Shown in pieces: positions 34,102-43,296 of a stretch of DNA of 59,448 nt (position 1 is its first letter; each line of letters starts with the position of its first letter). Both the position numbers and the translations under genes were made by a program. This stretch comes from a virus: positions 1 to 59,448 of IMG/VR virus record IMGVR_UViG_3300032820_000008; one strand, 5' to 3'. The notes below the pieces were generated by a model. It did no database searches, was not told where the DNA came from, and was given only the letters and a program-made list of their open reading frames with translations.

Positions 34102-34543
34102 ACGCTCGCTCTCTCTATTTGGTTCTCTCGCTAATGATGGCTCGCTCCGGCCCTGTGGTTCTCTCAACAAAAATGGCTCGCTCTCGCTCCTTGGTTCTCT
34201 CAACAAAAATGGCTCGCTCGCGCTGCGTGGTTCTCTCAACGCGCTTGGCTCGCTCCCTATACCTGGTTCTCTCAAGAGCCGTGGCTCGCTCGCGTTTCCT
34301 GGTTCTCTCCACGTCAATGGCTCGCTCGCTAATTTTGGTTCTCTCTACGACGCTGGCTCGCTTTCCTTTTCTGGTTCTCTCAACTGCCTTGGCTCGCTCG
34401 CTAATTTTGGTTCTCTCAAGAGCCGTGGCTCGCTCTTGGTTTGTGGTTCTCTCACTTTAACTGGCTCGCTCTTGGATTGTGGTTCTCTCTAATTAAGTGG
34501 CTCGCTCAAGAGCCTTAGTTCTCTCTGACGTGATGGCTCTTAT
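34102..34543. repeat. Array A: alternating decamers with 8-base variable spacers
   Basis: Twenty-five decamers sit at an exact 18-base period with no break. TGGCTCGCTC (13 copies, at 34102, 34138, 34174 and so on to 34534, the two ends degenerate) alternates with TGGTTCTCTC (12 copies, at 34120, 34156 and so on to 34516). Each of the 24 spacers is 8 bases and most are different. Recurring ones are AACAAAAA (twice), GCTAATTT (twice) and AAGAGCCG (twice, plus AAGAGCCT once). On the transcribed minus strand the repeats read GAGCGAGCCA and GAGAGAACCA, purine-rich with no self-complementarity. Frames across it are open only because 18 is a multiple of three. Confidence 0.97.
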
Positions 34544-34596
34544 ACAGAGTATACCAAAGAGAAATTAAATCCTCAACGCTTACTAATAGTAGAGCA

Positions 34597-34620
34597 TAAA
34601 AAACCCCGCCGGAGCGGGGT
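34597..34620 (-). terminator. Intrinsic terminator before array A
   Basis: On the minus strand ACCCCGC-TCCG-GCGGGGT is followed by six T residues. It closes the 34621-34950 non-coding stretch and would stop transcripts before they enter array A, unless read through. Confidence 0.85.
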
Positions 34621-34950
34621 AAAACGTCAAGGAGTAAACGTTAACCAATATCGTAGAGGGTAATGTTCGGCATGGGGACAACGCCGAGTATTACTAATAC
34701 CGGTCACGCGAAAGTGTATCACGAACCTCTATCGGCCGAACTAAAATATCTCGTATATATTCTGTAGTACCCACAGCTAAGATTTCACTGACAGAAATCA
34801 CAAAAAAGGCTATTAAAATTTCAATCTGTCACGGGTGAAAACCCTGTCCGAATAGTTAAAATCCCGTTTATCCCCCCTACCATCCCCCTTACTTAACCTG
34901 AGATCGTCGCTTAGAACGCAACTACGGCGGTCGAATTTTCTTGCAAACAT
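34621..34950 (-). ncRNA. Non-coding stretch bounded by two terminators, candidate RNA
   Basis: There is no ORF of note on either strand in about 330 bases. A minus-strand transcript would begin after the terminator at 34951-34978 and end at the one at 34597-34620. Local pairings are visible: TAGAGG with CCTCTA enclosing GTTCG with CGAAC near the 3' end, GTATTA-G-TAATAC, and GGGT-TTTC-ACCC. I found no convincing promoter. The placement between two arrays and near a Tnp_20 gene makes a structured RNA plausible, but this is inference. Confidence 0.4.
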
Positions 34951-34978
34951 AAAAAAACCCCGCCGAAGCAGGGTTTTA
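34951..34978 (-). terminator. Intrinsic terminator after the 66-residue gene
   Basis: On the minus strand CCCTGC-TTCG-GCGGGG is followed by seven T residues. The other strand also ends in TTTT after the stem, so weak bidirectional use is possible. It ends the middle operon. Confidence 0.85.
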
Positions 34979-34990
34979 ATAAATTAGAGG

Positions 34991-35023
34991 CTAAACTCTG
35001 TGACATTTTGTCACAGAGTTTAG
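34991..35023. promoter_or_regulatory. Palindrome 1 (GTGACA-TTT-TGTCAC)
   Basis: Perfect 15-base arms (CTAAACTCTGTGACA and its complement) flank three T residues. It lies between the 66-residue gene's stop and the terminator, the only copy that is downstream of a last gene. Confidence 0.85.
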
Positions 35024-35025
35024 GG

Positions 35026-35226
35026 TTAGTTATCTCTGCGTTCGGTTAGCTTTTTTAACCAAATCTTCACCCGCGTCTTGAAGCCCATCTTCAAGTCTTT
35101 GTAATCCCGCATACTTGCAGGGGGATGTTGCGTTTCGTCCACAGTAAATGACGTTAGATTCTCGCGAATGCGTTCCATGCGTACTTCGCTTGGAGTTATC
35201 GTATGTAGTGTTTGTTTACATGTCAT
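35026..35226 (-). CDS. Small basic protein, 66 aa
   Basis: It begins MTCKQTLHTITPSEVRMERI and ends with a Lys/Arg-rich helix (LKMGFKTRVKIWLKKLTERR). AAGGAG is correctly placed before the ATG. It is the last gene of the middle operon, right after the 400-residue orphan. The basic amphipathic helix could bind nucleic acid or membrane. No family is recognised. Confidence 0.6.
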   Translation of the reverse strand: MTCKQTLHTITPSEVRMERIRENLTSFTVDETQHPPASMRDYKDLKMGFKTRVKIWLKKLTERRDN

Positions 35227-35241
35227 TCTATTACTCCTTCT

Positions 35242-36444
35242 TTAGTATTCCACATTGTCATCAAGAAAATAAAACACCTGACCGTCTTGGCCTCCCTTAA
35301 GTAGGGCATCGTAAGTCGCTGGCTTTTCATACCGTCCAAGCCCTACATTCGGAATGTAATTTAATACAGGGTCATGCGGACCTAAGTCAGCATATGCACC
35401 CATATCACCGTCACTTTGCAAACCAATATTTAAGACAGCAATTTTTTCACTAGCACTTGCGTTCTCATTTATAAAGCTGTCCAGATTTGGGAAGTATGAA
35501 CGCTCAAATTTTGTAGGCCAATCACTATAGAAAGTCACTACATCAGTGGTGAGGTCATGACATACCACGCGCTTTACACTGTCTTTAAAAATATTAAAGA
35601 ATCTATCGTGTACCTCGTATGGTTTTTTAAGGGCAGCTATGGCCTCACTTTCCTTCCTTATAAAGGTAGCCATAAAATCCTTATCAAATATAAACTCCGG
35701 TAAAATAGATTCCGATGTAGCGGGATCATATTTAGAAGTGTCAATGTGATCAAAGAATATAGTAATTGCGTCCCTATACTTCCGTGTAAAGTTGCTTATG
35801 CTAGAACGCATAGCCATTTTTGTCGTCCCTAAATGACGGTCATCAGCAGGTAAGTTACCAGATAAAACAGTGCTAAAAATCGAATCGATTGCAGAAAGTA
35901 TGCGTTTTCCCACGCCTTTCCCATACCATTTATGACATTGATAAGTTAGGGAAGTGAGATTTTTTACACTTATCATATTCGTAGAATCGGAGAAATACCC
36001 TCCAAGTCCATTGTTAATTTGTAGTTGTGACCTTGCCCTCCTTCTAACTGCTTTAGACGTAATAGCAATAACGATAGAATCGCGTTTGCCACCGTGCGCA
36101 CAACCGGCAGAAACACATTCAGGATGCTGTGAATGATGCAACGCAGAGATATCAAATATGCTGACGATTCCCAGATAGCTCCCCGTAACCGTATCGTATA
36201 GTTGTAACCCATGTATGTACTCGTCGTCGTGGAAAATGAATTGGGAATCTGCCCAATCTAACACGGTGGCATCCGACATCGAATGTGACAGCTCCCCGTA
36301 AAAAGCTTTCCCACGTACAAACCCCGTAACACTTCGGGGGTCATCACCCCGCTTTGTTACTACTTCTTTAACACACCTAATCACATATTCCATGCGTGGA
36401 TCTATCGCTAAGTTTTCTGGATTTTTTATAATAATGTCTGACAT
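35242..36444 (-). CDS. Orphan 400-residue protein between the two arrays
   Basis: It starts MSDIIIKNPENLAIDPRMEY with a well-spaced RBS (AAGGAG). The N-terminal half looks like a mixed alpha/beta domain with repeated His/Asp residues (ELSHSMSDATVLDWADSQFI, FDISALHHSQHPECVSAGCA with two Cys and several His). A helical middle follows (about residues 160-310), and the C-terminal part is aromatic-rich (NVGLGRYEKPATYDALLKGG). I do not recognise a family. It is flanked by palindrome 2 upstream and by the 66-residue gene downstream. It lies between the two arrays and after the Tnp_20 gene in the same direction, so it may belong to the same functional unit. Confidence 0.75.
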   Translation of the reverse strand: MSDIIIKNPENLAIDPRMEYVIRCVKEVVTKRGDDPRSVTGFVRGKAFYGELSHSMSDATVLDWADSQFIFHDDEYIHGLQLYDTVTGSYLGIVSIFDISALHHSQHPECVSAGCAHGGKRDSIVIAITSKAVRRRARSQLQINNGLGGYFSDSTNMISVKNLTSLTYQCHKWYGKGVGKRILSAIDSIFSTVLSGNLPADDRHLGTTKMAMRSSISNFTRKYRDAITIFFDHIDTSKYDPATSESILPEFIFDKDFMATFIRKESEAIAALKKPYEVHDRFFNIFKDSVKRVVCHDLTTDVVTFYSDWPTKFERSYFPNLDSFINENASASEKIAVLNIGLQSDGDMGAYADLGPHDPVLNYIPNVGLGRYEKPATYDALLKGGQDGQVFYFLDDNVEY

Positions 36445-36461
36445 AATTTACTCCTTAAGAG

Positions 36462-36494
36462 CTGAACTCCGTGACAAAATGTCACAGAGTTCAG
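36462..36494. promoter_or_regulatory. Palindrome 2, before the 400-residue gene
   Basis: Arms CTGAACTCCGTGACA and TGTCACAGAGTTCAG flank AAA, with one G-U pair in RNA. It lies between array B and the RBS of the 400-residue gene, so it would be in that gene's leader. Confidence 0.85.
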
Positions 36495-36516
36495 CGGGTT
36501 ATTGTCGTTTAACTAA

Positions 36517-36960
36517 TGGCTCGCTCATTGGCGATGGTTCTCTCTCAATAATTGGCTCGCTCTGCCTTTTTGGTTCTCTCATCCGTCATTGGCTCGCTCT
36601 GAAGGTTTGATTCTTTCGGTGCTTGTGGCTCGCTCTGACCCTATGGTTCTCTCATTCGAACTGGCTCGCTCCTTTCTTTTGGTTCTCTCATGCCCCGTGG
36701 CTCGCTCCGAAACGTTGGTTCTCTCGTGCCCCATGGCTCGCTCACGCTGTTTGGTTCTCTCTTCCGTCATTGGCTCGCTCTAGCCCTTTGGTTCTCTCAT
36801 CCGAAATGGCTCGCTCTAACCCTTTGGTTCTCTCAGGCGGTATGGCTCGCTCCGGCTTGTTGGTTCTCTCTGGCGGTATGGCTCGCTCTGAAACGTTGGT
36901 TCTCTCGTGTCAATTGGCTCGCTTACTAGCAATGGTTCTCTCTCGATCATTGGCTCGCTC
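36517..36960. repeat. Array B: second alternating-decamer array
   Basis: It is built like array A, again with 13 TGGCTCGCTC-type and 12 TGGTTCTCTC-type decamers. Spacers are 8 bases except two of 9, both ending TCCGTCAT (36581-36589 and 36762-36770). The copy at 36608 is degenerate (TGATTCTTTC). Related spacers occur as pairs: CGAAACGT/TGAAACGT, TAGCCCTT/TAACCCTT, ATGCCCCG/GTGCCCCA and AGGCGGTA/TGGCGGTA. None of the 24 spacers is shared with array A. The array stops five bases short of the Tnp_20 stop codon, and a further partial TGGCTCG lies within that gene's last codons. Confidence 0.97.
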
Positions 36961-36964
36961 TAAG

Positions 36965-37780
36965 TTAGAACGGTGGCTCGATTTTATGAGCATGGCCCTC
37001 ATGCACCATGACGTATGGTGCCGGTGGCAATTTATCAAACTCATGCCGATACCAGACCTCATGAAGGTGCGATAGGAAAATCTTGACAGCATAGCGTTTG
37101 GCTCGCGCATGAATATGTGCTGGAGGCAACTTGCCTATGATGTAGGCTTTGTAGGCATCCGTTTTCTTACCTATATTATATTTTTCCAGCTTCGCTTTCG
37201 CTTGCTCAGAAAAAAGACCCTCGTCGTTTTTCTTTAACTCAATCTCCTTGCGTGTCTTATATAACGCACCATAGAAGTCGTCGTCGTGGTTGCTCACCTT
37301 CACAAAGCTCTCGCCCAACTTCCAGCACAATGTCTTTAACTCCGCATTGTGTGGACGCTTCTTTCCCTTGTCCCATTTCGCAGTGGGGTCGAGACCGGCA
37401 AATCGCCAGATAGCTCCAGCAGTAGGAGCTTGTTCTATATCTATATGTGCAATCAGACCAGCAGCTATAACTGGGCCAATGCCAACGACCGTGCGAACGC
37501 GCCGACCAATGGGGTGAGCATCGGAGTACACGTCCAACGAAGCACGTACACTTTTCTCCAAAATGTCTGCCTGAGTAGACAGCCAGCCTAATACTTCATG
37601 TGGTTCTTCTTTCATTGACCTAATTTGATTATTAGAACGAATACGATTGCCCTGCATTTGGTAATACGCATCGACTAAAAACCGTGCTTCAGCATCAGAT
37701 AAAGTTCTGGATGCAACACGCAAATCACGGGACAGTTGTGTGACCGACATAGTGATTTCAGTGGTTTCAGTAATATTCAT
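36965..37780 (-). CDS. Transposase_20-only protein (IS110-family C-terminal domain)
   Basis: In this 271-residue protein, residues 1-90 are helical and match no RuvC-like DEDD nuclease. Residues 96-113 (RTVVGIGPVIAAGLIAHI) are the helix-hairpin-helix that opens the IS116/IS110/IS902 C-terminal domain, and WRFAGLDP at 125-132 is its next signature. In IS110 transposases a Ser-Gly follows GL-x-P and the serine is catalytic; here the place reads AKWDKGKKRPH, so I see no such serine. The protein may therefore bind DNA or RNA without recombining. RBS AAGGAG; palindrome 3 lies upstream; array B starts right after the stop. There are no flanking insertion-sequence ends. Confidence 0.8.
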   Translation of the reverse strand: MNITETTEITMSVTQLSRDLRVASRTLSDAEARFLVDAYYQMQGNRIRSNNQIRSMKEEPHEVLGWLSTQADILEKSVRASLDVYSDAHPIGRRVRTVVGIGPVIAAGLIAHIDIEQAPTAGAIWRFAGLDPTAKWDKGKKRPHNAELKTLCWKLGESFVKVSNHDDDFYGALYKTRKEIELKKNDEGLFSEQAKAKLEKYNIGKKTDAYKAYIIGKLPPAHIHARAKRYAVKIFLSHLHEVWYRHEFDKLPPAPYVMVHEGHAHKIEPPF

Positions 37781-37798
37781 TGAACTTACTCCTTAAGG

Positions 37799-37831
37799 CT
37801 GAACTCTGTGACAAAATGTCACAGAGTTCAG
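37799..37831. promoter_or_regulatory. Palindrome 3, before the Tnp_20 gene
   Basis: Perfect arms CTGAACTCTGTGACA and TGTCACAGAGTTCAG flank AAA. It lies in the leader of the Tnp_20 gene, between the preceding gene's stop (37850) and the RBS. Confidence 0.88.
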
Positions 37832-37849
37832 CGGGTTATTATCATGTAA

Positions 37850-38114: not shown

Positions 38115-39542
38115 TCACTTAATTGTGATTAAACTTCCGAACGTCGGTACGAATTCAGAATTCCCACCGCGCTCAATTACAGCCCATAGAACTGGGATAC
38201 CAAGTTTCTCCCAATCCCCCTCGCTATCCCCATAAAAATACCCATCAGTAAATATAATTACCGCATTAATATCTTGGTATTCGCCGGTTAGTATTTTGTC
38301 CTCGACCTGTCTAAAAACACAGCTTGGATCTGTGCCACCACCACCTATCGGCTTGGTCGAATCTTCAAGATTTGCATACGACATTTCGTCGTAGGTTTCC
38401 TCTCCTTGAACACTATAATCCCAATAAACGAGATGAACTTTTTCAGGCATGACATCCATAGCTATTGTCTTAAATTCCGATAGGAACTTATCAATATCAG
38501 AGAACACCGAACCGGACGTATCCATTGCCACAACCATCTGTCCAGCTTTTTCGTCAAGCATGGATGGCATATAAATATCCGAACCGATAAGTCGTCGGTT
38601 ATATTTACGCCAGGTTGTCTGACCACCACCCTTCACTTGTTGTTTTATAAACTCAGCAAGGATTTCCTGCCACGGTGTTTCGACTGCCAGTAATTTAACA
38701 ACAGCTTTAGCAATGCCATCGCTGCCGGTCCCTGCTACCTCCGCAGCTTGGCGAATAGCACGGTCCAACTCGTTGTTGTCCTTCTCTAATTCTTCGGCAG
38801 TTTTTTCCTCGTCGTAGTTGTGGTCGTCGTGCTGGTCCTCGGCACGTTTCCTAATCTTCTCGGAGTATTTTGCTGGTCCTTTTTTATTACTATGATGAAA
38901 CTTTTCTTCGTCCTCCTCTGGTTCTTCTGTTTCATTATCATCGTCATCATTTGGAGGAATAGGATATCCACCAGGAGGGCATGGTCCGTTTTTGCCTGGT
39001 GGTACTGGAGGAGGAGTAACACCTTTTTTACCCTTCTTAGGAACAGTCCCTTGCTTTTCCTCATTCTCAAGCAAGAGAATATCCACCACCTGCTTAGAAT
39101 CCATGTTTATAAATTGGTCATCTAACAGGCACGCTGGCATACCTTTTTTCGGTCCCTCCTTATATCGTGGTATCCGTAAGAACTTTTCGTCCGGGTCCAA
39201 ATCCCTAAGCATGGGATTAATTACGTAGTCATTCGCCATGTTTGTTAGCAACGCATACTTTTCGCGTAACTTTTTCCAGATGAACAGATGTTTGTAGACC
39301 TTGTGCATACACTCATGGAGAACAACAAACATTAACTCCTTGTCATCCAATGTCTGCACAAACGCTGGGTTGTAGTAGGTGTTGATACCATCGGTCGCAG
39401 CCGTTGGTACTTCATCGGTGAATATAGTTTCACCGTGCAGAAGCATACTCCCGAAAAATCTAAGTTTCGGTATCTGCATACAGCGAACGTGTGTACGTTC
39501 GACGCGCTGTTGCGCGGTGTATTCTGGATTTTGTAATCCCAT
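38115..39542 (-). CDS. DUF2201-like/VWA domain protein
   Basis: This 475-residue protein has an N-terminal metallopeptidase-like domain with FVVLHECMHKVYKHLFIWKK (HExxH near residue 71). A Pro/Gly/acidic linker (residues 175-245) follows, then a C-terminal von Willebrand A domain with MIDAS residues MDTSGSV (about 343), the TD of GGGGTDPS and IIFTDGYF. This is the DUF2201 N/C architecture found as partner of MoxR AAA+ ATPases. The partner lies two genes upstream at 40491-41618. The pair is thought to remodel or assemble other protein complexes; the phage substrate is not known. Confidence 0.85.
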   Translation of the reverse strand: MGLQNPEYTAQQRVERTHVRCMQIPKLRFFGSMLLHGETIFTDEVPTAATDGINTYYNPAFVQTLDDKELMFVVLHECMHKVYKHLFIWKKLREKYALLTNMANDYVINPMLRDLDPDEKFLRIPRYKEGPKKGMPACLLDDQFINMDSKQVVDILLLENEEKQGTVPKKGKKGVTPPPVPPGKNGPCPPGGYPIPPNDDDDNETEEPEEDEEKFHHSNKKGPAKYSEKIRKRAEDQHDDHNYDEEKTAEELEKDNNELDRAIRQAAEVAGTGSDGIAKAVVKLLAVETPWQEILAEFIKQQVKGGGQTTWRKYNRRLIGSDIYMPSMLDEKAGQMVVAMDTSGSVFSDIDKFLSEFKTIAMDVMPEKVHLVYWDYSVQGEETYDEMSYANLEDSTKPIGGGGTDPSCVFRQVEDKILTGEYQDINAVIIFTDGYFYGDSEGDWEKLGIPVLWAVIERGGNSEFVPTFGSLITIK

Positions 39543-40460: not shown

Positions 40461-40489
40461 GAACTGCGTGACAAAATGTCACAGAGTTC
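40461..40489. promoter_or_regulatory. Palindrome 4, between ATPase and coiled-coil genes
   Basis: GAACTGCGTGACA and TGTCACAGAGTTC flank AAA, with one mismatch. It abuts the stop codon of the ATPase gene (40491) and precedes the leader of the coiled-coil gene. Confidence 0.85.
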
Positions 40490-40490
40490 G

Positions 40491-41618
40491 CTACATTCCG
40501 AACAGATGTTTGACCCCGGTCGCCCATTTCCCAAACTCGCTAGTAGATTCCATCACCTCTTTTAGGTCTTCTTTTTCGCGAGCATTAAGCACAAACAGAG
40601 CCTGAGTTTCGTTAGAAAATTCCGGCTCTCCGCCTGCATCTTTACGGGTTATATATTTGAACCAAGCACTAACATCCGAGCGGGTTTTCACCCACTGCAC
40701 TGCCGATAACATTACTAAACACACAGCAGCAGGGTCAGTCGGTACCAACGCTGTCTCGGGGGTATTGCGGATTTCATCGGGCGATGGAATCTGGTTCTCC
40801 AACGAGATAAACGTAGCGAGTTGCTGCGCGCCTTCGCGACCTATCGCACCTTCCAGACAAGCCATCATCTGCCTGTCGGAAATCTTGTTGTCTTTGTAAT
40901 CCCACACAATATGGCTTGCTGTTTCTAAAGAACGAGGAGAGACATAAGACAACCCAGTGCCGTTGTGAGTTTTTGGGTTGTAGATGTACGGGTTGGTGTC
41001 ACCGTCCGCCAAGTCGCGGTACGACTGCATGACCTGAGTCTCGCGTTTTACCCACGCCATCACCACCGGATGGACGTTATTATGTACCGCAAAATTCTTG
41101 ATCCACTCGTCGGCACTTGGCTTGCCTACGAATAATCGGACTTCCCGATTGACGGTATGGCCTTTCATCATGTCGCCCACGCCATCGGTCGTGAGATTAC
41201 CTGTTGATATAACTACAGAATCAGGATGTAACGTGATAGCCCCGATGCGTCGTGGTCGTGTAAGTAGTGGGTGGAGAATAGCTTGGAGTGCCGGAGCACC
41301 CTTGGAATATTCATCAAGCCAGATGCAGACGGGAACACCGAGATGCAGACCCCAATGCTCGGATGGATATAATTGGACAGTCTTGGTTTCGTGGTTGGGT
41401 ATCGGGATTCCGATATCGGATATGTCGGTACTCGGTACGTCCATATAAATGAATGGCATATTCAGTTTCTTGGCTATCTCGCTGCCAATATAAGTTTTAC
41501 CTATTCCGGGTTCGCCCATTAGATGGAAGGTAACCTTACCGCGACTCGCGACAATGCAGTCTATTACATCTTCTAAAGTTGAAGGTTTGGTTGATACAGA
41601 TAATGTAGATTCACTCAT
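40491..41618 (-). CDS. MoxR-type AAA+ ATPase
   Basis: This 375-residue protein has Walker A LMGEPGIGKTYIGSEIAKKL (about residue 33), Walker B VCIWLDEYSKGAPALQ (about 97) and sensor 1 VVISTGNLTT (about 131). The insert VPSTDISDIGIPIP after Walker A is typical of MoxR/dynein-related AAA+ proteins. Such ATPases work with VWA proteins as chaperones or complex-remodelling machines. Its VWA/DUF2201 partner and a coiled-coil protein follow in the same operon. RBS GAGGAA; the next gene upstream ends 5 bases away. Confidence 0.88.
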   Translation of the reverse strand: MSESTLSVSTKPSTLEDVIDCIVASRGKVTFHLMGEPGIGKTYIGSEIAKKLNMPFIYMDVPSTDISDIGIPIPNHETKTVQLYPSEHWGLHLGVPVCIWLDEYSKGAPALQAILHPLLTRPRRIGAITLHPDSVVISTGNLTTDGVGDMMKGHTVNREVRLFVGKPSADEWIKNFAVHNNVHPVVMAWVKRETQVMQSYRDLADGDTNPYIYNPKTHNGTGLSYVSPRSLETASHIVWDYKDNKISDRQMMACLEGAIGREGAQQLATFISLENQIPSPDEIRNTPETALVPTDPAAVCLVMLSAVQWVKTRSDVSAWFKYITRKDAGGEPEFSNETQALFVLNAREKEDLKEVMESTSEFGKWATGVKHLFGM

Positions 41619-42168: not shown

Positions 42169-42201
42169 CTGAACTGTGTGACAAAATGTCACGGAGTTCG
42201 G
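42169..42201. promoter_or_regulatory. Palindrome 5
   Basis: CTGAACTGTGTGACA and TGTCACGGAGTTCGG flank AAA, the arms slightly imperfect outside the core. It lies between the 62-residue gene and the start at 42145. Confidence 0.8.
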
Positions 42202-42407: not shown

Positions 42408-42424
42408 ATTGTCTCCAGAATTGT

Positions 42425-42439
42425 GTGACAAAATGTCAC
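42425..42439. promoter_or_regulatory. Palindrome 6
   Basis: GTGACAAAATGTCAC core without the longer arms of other copies. It lies about 95 bases downstream of the middle promoter and just before the first RBS. Confidence 0.75.
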
Positions 42440-42532
42440 GTTATTTACCTGCTAATTAATGTTTTAAAATATGTAGGTGGCTAACCTTACGAGGAAGCCC
42501 GCTGGTTTTTTTAAACGTGGTTTGAAAAAACC

Positions 42533-43040: not shown

Positions 43041-43080
43041 CTTGCTGCTTTTTGGGAACTGGTTTGGCATAGCAAACCTT

Positions 43081-43095
43081 GTGACATTCTGTCAC
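43081..43095. promoter_or_regulatory. Palindrome 7
   Basis: GTGACATTCTGTCAC followed by AGAGTTCG, matching one side of the longer arms seen in palindromes 1-5. Confidence 0.75.
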
Positions 43096-43136
43096 AGAGT
43101 TCGAGGTGAACTTCGTGACGAAAACCAGCGAATCTT

Positions 43137-43151
43137 GTGACATTTTGTCAC
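43137..43151. promoter_or_regulatory. Palindrome 8 with adjacent half-site
   Basis: GTGACATTTTGTCAC followed by AGAGTTTG. A half-site TTTTGTCACAGAGTTTG follows at 43165-43181. Confidence 0.75.
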
Positions 43152-43296
43152 AGAGTTTGTCCTGTTTTGTCACAGAGTTTGCAAGGTCCGCATAGTTCAC
43201 GGGGTTGCGAGGTTTGTTTCTAACTTCGTTCTGTAGAATAATTAAGATGCGCCGAGGACTTCGTTTGCTTCGTTTGCTTGGCCGCTGCCCGACCCC

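What the first reader, a model, noticed from the sequence alone, without database searches (positions are those of the whole stretch)
34102..36960. Two matched arrays of alternating decamers with fixed-length variable spacers
Seen directly: 25 decamers in each of two arrays (34102-34543 and 36517-36960), with strict alternation of TGGCTCGCTC and TGGTTCTCTC. Spacers are 8 bases except two 9-base ones in the second array. Conserved short repeat plus constant-length variable spacer is the outline of an information-bearing or multi-site binding array, but it matches no CRISPR, iteron, retron or stoperator family I know. Decamers are asymmetric and cannot pair with each other, so each is likely a one-sided binding site in DNA or, on the transcribed strand, in purine-rich RNA. 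Two identical copy numbers suggest the number matters.
Basis: partly seen in the sequence, partly recalled or inferred. Interest (0 to 1): 0.95.

Follow-up and report, generated by a model that had tools for sequence, protein, structure and literature searches.

The report
Phage TIGR-TasA guide RNA arrays
The two repeat arrays are TIGR arrays, recently described stores of paired guides for an RNA-guided DNA-binding protein (TasA) encoded beside them in a phage; comparing about 1,650 guides from its relatives suggests that each guide pair spells one continuous 16-letter stretch of someone else's DNA.

Summary
Read on the minus strand, the decamers are the edge (GAGCGAGCCA) and loop (GAGAGAACCA) repeats of two TIGR arrays, 12 units each, period 36, 8-nt spacers. 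The gene ending 4 nt before array 2 (36965-37780, minus, 271 aa) is TasA, the nuclease-less Nop-domain effector: it scores 208 bits against NCBI's TIGR-Tas model (cut-off 100), and its predicted fold best matches the solved TasH and TasR complexes. Nearly all relatives carry such arrays, and an array-only search led back to a tas gene.

The natural targets of TIGR spacers are unknown. About 1,650 spacer pairs from 129 loci suggest that each unit spells one contiguous 16-bp DNA site, read spacer B then the reverse complement of spacer A, with no gap. Junction dinucleotides look like natural DNA only in that reading, and unrelated phages carry the same or overlapping sites, two of them with A and B swapped. 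No convincing target was found. Best mechanism: tigRNA-guided TasA binding, without cutting, of foreign DNA. A new member of a known kind; the spacer-origin result is the interesting part.

The parts
36965..37780 (-). tasA: solo Nop-domain TIGR-associated protein, 271 aa, no nuclease domain
   Evidence: NF052498 TIGR_Tas_endo 208 bits, cut-off 100; phmmer to TasH and 9mty; AlphaFold model pLDDT 83, Foldseek top 11 hits all TasH/TasR complexes
36517..36960 (-). TIGR array 2: 13 edge and 12 loop repeats, 12 spacer pairs; starts 4 nt after the tasA stop codon, so probably co-transcribed
   Evidence: parse; sequence
34102..34543 (-). TIGR array 1: 12 spacer pairs, 5'-truncated edge GAGCCA at 34534-34539 and 3'-truncated edge near 34103-34111
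34548..34576 (-). promoter-like site TTGAGG-N17-TATACT with TG before the -10, placed so that transcription would start at about the first truncated edge of array 1
   Evidence: number of promoter-like sites in the region not above shuffles; the position is the argument
34603..34620 (-). intrinsic terminator upstream of array 1, separating it from the genes before it
34954..34977 (-). second intrinsic terminator upstream of array 1
37798..37832 (-). 16-bp leader hairpin just before the ribosome-binding site of tasA; further copies elsewhere in the window
35242..36444 (-). orphan 400-aa gene lying between the two arrays; link to TIGR not shown
   Evidence: no Pfam, NCBIfam, PHROG or relatives' hit; folded alone pLDDT 33, uninformative
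35026..35226 (-). 66-aa ORF between the arrays, unknown

Best explanation
This is a TIGR-TasA system of a tailed phage. The arrays are transcribed on the minus strand (array 2 with tasA, array 1 probably from its own promoter) and cut into 36-nt tigRNAs, each holding spacer A and spacer B. A TasA dimer holds one tigRNA; spacer A pairs with one strand and spacer B with the other strand of a contiguous 16-bp DNA site, opening and bending it. With no nuclease domain, TasA should block transcription or replication there rather than cut. The targets are most likely other mobile elements competing for the same host, not the phage itself. Shown here: array and effector identity, conserved architecture, target geometry by comparison. 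Carried over from published TasR/TasH/TasA work: processing, dimer, bending. Inferred: no cutting, foreign targets. The confidence below is for a TIGR-TasA system that binds DNA through paired spacers; foreign mobile DNA as the main target is about 0.55 on its own.
For: Effector. Arrays beside tas in relatives; array-only search finds tas in 24 of 31 stretches, the rest mostly contig or fragment edges. Edge and loop repeats co-vary at the last base of box C: 92 A/A, 11 G/G, no A/G mix, as expected for a symmetric dimer (PMC12045711). Geometry B + rc(A), gap 0: junction dinucleotides correlate with intra-spacer ones r=0.84, 0 of 200 permutations; other orders and the other phase do not; held-out loci alone r=0.71, 6 of 1000. 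Unrelated locus groups share shifted or swapped sites: 10 versus shuffle mean 2.4, none of 300 shuffles as high; strongest class 4 versus 0.08; 11 versus 3.9 in the larger set. Two are exact 16-bp sites with A and B swapped. No self-targets above chance.
Against: No natural target was identified. Related TIGR phages are not targeted above chance; joint sites are absent from phage records and, for two of them, from 396 Acidobacteriota genomes. Expression, processing and binding were not tested. None of the shared-site pairs scoring 6.5 or more involves a spacer of this window. Array 2 lacks the truncated edges and terminator described for typical arrays.
Confidence: 0.88

Rival explanations
1. 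TIGR-TasA used by the phage to regulate its own genes or replication, the spacers addressing sites in its own genome.
For: TasA has no nuclease; tasA shares a leader hairpin with other genes of the phage, so it sits in the phage's own regulon.
Against: None of the 24 spacer pairs has a self-match above permuted controls in any order or gap tested.
Confidence: 0.08
2. TIGR-TasA aimed at host chromosome genes, as an RNA-guided host-takeover repressor.
For: Sites shared by unrelated phages could be conserved host genes.
Against: Two joint sites (19 and 20 nt, one mismatch allowed) found in none of 396 Acidobacteriota genomes; the true host is unknown, so this is weak.
Confidence: 0.25
3. An IS110-type RNA-guided transposon with a repeat-rich bridge RNA.
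For: Pfam Transposase_20 at 25.8 bits and a weak IS110 model match.
Against: The IS110 model match is 28 bits against a cut-off of 140; the match covers only the Nop-like part; no N-terminal DEDD domain; a multi-unit alternating array is not a bridge RNA.
Confidence: 0.01
4. A simple minisatellite or protein-binding array of no guide function.
For: Period 36 and near-identical decamers.
Against: Spacers are variable, period and repeats are conserved beside tas in more than 100 loci, and spacer pairs carry contiguous-DNA signal only in one order and phase.
Confidence: 0.02

Closest known systems
TIGR-TasA with dual-repeat arrays (FpTIGR of Flavonifractor plautii; Faure et al. 2025, PMC12045711)
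   Same: Solo Nop protein beside arrays of two alternating short repeats; 36-nt unit; box C ending CCA in both repeats here as in the published TasR arrays.
   Different: Spacers 8 nt instead of 9; two arrays with an orphan gene between them; no ParB partner found in the window.
TIGR-TasH of Salicola phage CGphi29 (SpTIGR)
   Same: 8-nt spacers (16 nt in all) as stated for SpTIGR in PMC12045711; phage-borne; sequence and fold similarity.
   Different: TasH has an N-terminal HNH nuclease; this protein has none.
TIGR-TasR (PDB 9mty)
   Same: Nop fold, Foldseek E 2e-6.
   Different: No RuvC domain here, so no cutting expected.
IS110 family transposases (IS621, ISCro4)
   Same: Shared Nop-like RNA-binding domain, Foldseek E about 0.005-0.07.
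   Different: No DEDD catalytic domain, guide array instead of a bridge RNA.
Type IV CRISPR-Cas
   Same: Analogy proposed in PMC12045711: RNA-guided blocking of rival mobile elements without cutting.
   Different: No sequence relation; different guide architecture and effector.

Membership tests
TIGR-Tas | Array of two distinct alternating 8-12 nt repeats with short spacers (about 9 nt, exceptions known) | tested here: met
   10-nt repeats, 8-nt spacers, strict alternation
TIGR-Tas | Adjacent Nop-domain Tas protein | tested here: met
   NF052498 208 bits; TasH/TasR in sequence and fold searches
TIGR-Tas | Box C/D motifs matched between edge and loop repeats | tested here: met
   Both end CCA here; across loci 92 A/A and 11 G/G, no A/G mixture
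TIGR-Tas | Truncated edge repeats at array ends, then a rho-independent terminator | tested here: inconclusive
   Array 1 has both truncated edges, array 2 not clearly; no terminator seen directly after either array
TIGR-Tas | Processing into 36-nt tigRNAs bound to Tas | not testable with these tools
   Period is 36 nt; needs small-RNA sequencing
TIGR-Tas | Tandem-spacer targeting of both strands of a contiguous DNA site | tested here: inconclusive
   Comparative evidence agrees; no binding assay
TasA subtype | Solo Nop domain without HNH or RuvC | tested here: met
   271 aa, only Transposase_20 and TIGR_Tas/IS110 model matches, almost all-helical model
TasA-TasParB operon | ParB-like gene in the tasA operon | tested here: not met
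   No PF02195 match in the window
IS110 transposase | DEDD catalytic domain and full-length IS110 model match | tested here: not met
   transpos_IS110 28 bits, cut-off 140, partial
CRISPR-Cas | Repeats of 25-36 nt of one kind with cas genes | tested here: not met
   Two 10-nt repeats; no cas-type match among the neighbouring proteins scanned

The most novel reading that the evidence does not exclude
TIGR arrays of TasA phages are records of contiguous 16-bp DNA protospacers, taken up or selected independently in different phages and in either orientation, so that unrelated phages converge on the same sites although no adaptation gene is known. The arrays would then be a CRISPR-like memory carried by phages against shared rivals, with a capture route yet to be found.
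Probability: 0.45. Interest if true: 0.85.

Novelty: new member of a known kind. Interest (0 to 1): 0.5.

Why it matters
TIGR-Tas was described in 2025 with its natural targets and the origin of its spacers left open, most of all for nuclease-less TasA. This window adds a two-array TasA system, and its relatives give a comparative answer to how spacer pairs read DNA in nature: as one contiguous 16-bp site, B then rc(A), used in either orientation. It fixes the search pattern for target hunting and points to host genomes carrying relatives (Halomonas sp. NO4, Acidobacteriaceae KBS 96) where it could be tested.

Tried and rejected
Self-targets: none above permuted controls. Targets in 1.4 and 2.5 Mb of related phage contigs: none above control orders. 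Exact searches of four shared sites in IMG/VR: 1, 6, 14 and 119 stretches. The 119 cluster in two conserved phage gene families encoding DQIDMV, but a common peptide in redundant contigs can explain that, and those contigs are not otherwise enriched in targets. Joint sites in INPHARED phages: none. Two joint sites in 396 Acidobacteriota genomes: none. tRNA T-loop idea from spacer GTTCGAAT: dropped, the other spacers do not look like tRNA and the window has no tRNA. Tas in plasmids: none. Rfam: only sub-threshold terminator-like hits. ParB partner: none. Structure of the orphan: unusable. One parser script timed out. Some divergent arrays (L103, L104, L148, L161, L172, L185, L190) are imperfectly parsed; they were left out of the reuse test but not out of the overlap test. 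The threshold of the overlap test was chosen after a first look at a subset of the loci, so its significance is somewhat optimistic; the junction test on loci fetched later is the cleaner check.

Full report
Observation. The repeats are as described: 45 matches of TGGYTCKCTC in the window against 0.23 expected by chance, in two arrays, strictly alternating, with 8-nt spacers and two 9-nt ones. On the minus strand they read GAGCGAGCCA - A - GAGAGAACCA - B, period 36.

Identity. The minus-strand gene 36965-37780 (271 aa) ends four bases before array 2. It matches NCBI's TIGR_Tas_endo model at 208 bits (cut-off 100), TasH and the 9mty protein by sequence, and its AlphaFold model (pLDDT 83) has TasH and TasR complexes as its eleven best solved neighbours. 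No nuclease domain was found, so it is TasA. The published description of TIGR arrays (PMC12045711) fits: two alternating 8-12 nt repeats called edge and loop, 36-nt units, box C ending CCA, short spacers (8 nt in SpTIGR). Edge = GAGCGAGCCA, because truncated copies of it bound array 1 and because only this phase carries target signal (below).

Layout. Array 2 follows tasA almost without a gap and is probably on its transcript. Array 1 lies behind two intrinsic terminators and has a promoter-like site whose start would fall at its first truncated edge; this is inference. Between the arrays sit a 400-aa orphan and a 66-aa ORF with no recognised relatives. The window is a 59,448-base virus record with terminase, portal, major head protein, family A DNA polymerase and primase/helicase, so a tailed phage.

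Conservation. At least 331 stretches of IMG/VR encode a relative of this Tas. In the 107 loci parsed, window included, all but one carry period-36 dual-repeat arrays, about 89% of spacers being 8 nt; the exception is cut by a contig end. Copy number varies from 5 to over 70 repeats, so 25 is not special. Edge and loop repeats co-vary at the last base of box C, 92 A/A and 11 G/G with no A/G mixture, as expected for a symmetric Tas dimer. Genomes with relatives include Halomonas sp. NO4, Acidobacteriaceae KBS 96 and Candidatus Propionivibrio aalborgensis.

How a unit reads its target. If A and B pair with opposite strands of one site, one strand of the target reads B followed by rc(A), or rc(A) followed by B. 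Two tests favour B + rc(A) with no gap. First, the dinucleotide at the B/rc(A) junction shows the biases found inside spacers (r=0.84, 0 of 200 permutations); no other order, and not the neighbouring-unit phase, does so. It repeats in loci fetched afterwards (350 units, r=0.71, 6 of 1000). Second, units from unrelated locus groups share sites in shifted or swapped register: 10 at the chosen threshold against 2.4 in shuffles (0 of 300 as high), and 4 of the strongest class against 0.08; with more loci 11 against 3.9 and 4 against 0.2. Two pairs are exact 16-bp sites with A and B exchanged (AGTCGAGATCTGTCAA in L005 and L026/L027; CATAGAGATTGCGTTT in L156 and L180); two more overlap by 13 of 13 bases at shifts of 3 and 4. 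Simple inheritance cannot readily give swapped or shifted registers, so these look like independent acquisitions of the same target. The published work showed in vitro that swapped spacers work and that gap-free sites are cut by TasR; here the same rule is seen in natural arrays of nuclease-less TasA, for which that paper reports no target.

Targets. None could be named. The phage's own genome has no match above permuted controls, nor do related TIGR phages. Exact searches for four shared sites gave 1 to 119 stretches; the largest set falls in two conserved phage gene families but is not otherwise enriched in targets. INPHARED and two searches of 396 Acidobacteriota genomes were empty.

Mechanism. 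Most likely: tigRNA-guided TasA binds and bends 16-bp sites on competing mobile DNA and blocks them without cutting. Identity and geometry are supported here; RNA processing, dimer and bending carry over from published Tas work; blocking and foreign targets are inference. Host genes as targets remain the main rival.

Verdict. A known kind of system (TIGR-Tas, 2025), new member, TasA type with 8-nt spacers. The comparative evidence that spacer pairs are contiguous natural DNA shared by unrelated phages is the part a specialist would want, because it makes the open question of natural targets and spacer origin searchable.

Noticed in passing
34998-35016, 36469-36487, 37806-37824, 40466-40484, 42176-42194, 42423-42441, 43079-43097, 43135-43153: Eight copies of a near-palindrome CTGTGACATTTTGTCACAG, several of them directly before the ribosome-binding sites of minus-strand genes including tasA and the orphan gene; absent from five related phage contigs at one mismatch. 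Looks like an operator or a leader hairpin.
   Followed up: partly
34102-36960: Half-spacer reuse: one spacer of a unit returns, exact or with one change, beside a different partner (CGGCTCTT, AAATTAGC, TTTTTGTT, TACCGCCA/T, ACGTTTCA/G). Across loci the within-array excess over between-locus pairs is about 5-8 fold for A-A and B-B pairs, this window having the most. Unexplained.
   Followed up: partly
all parsed loci: Spacer GC is nearly flat (0.45-0.53 in most loci looked at) even where the carrying phage has 0.65 GC (slope 0.40), so spacers are not drawn from DNA like the phage's own, or are selected for middling GC.
   Followed up: partly
L253-L332: The 16-mer ACCAGATCGACATGGT, target of a unit in L010, is in 119 stretches of viral DNA, mostly in two unrelated conserved genes encoding DQIDMV.
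   Followed up: partly
38115-39542 and 40491-41618: A DUF2201 metallopeptidase/VWA protein and an AAA ATPase upstream of tasA, resembling a MoxR-VWA module.
   Followed up: no
36974-36983: An edge-like sequence CGAGCCA lies inside the last codons of tasA, 13 nt before the first edge repeat of array 2.
   Followed up: no
L377:9405-10264 and L395:3459-4514: TIGR-type arrays with no tas gene detected in the flanks held.
   Followed up: no
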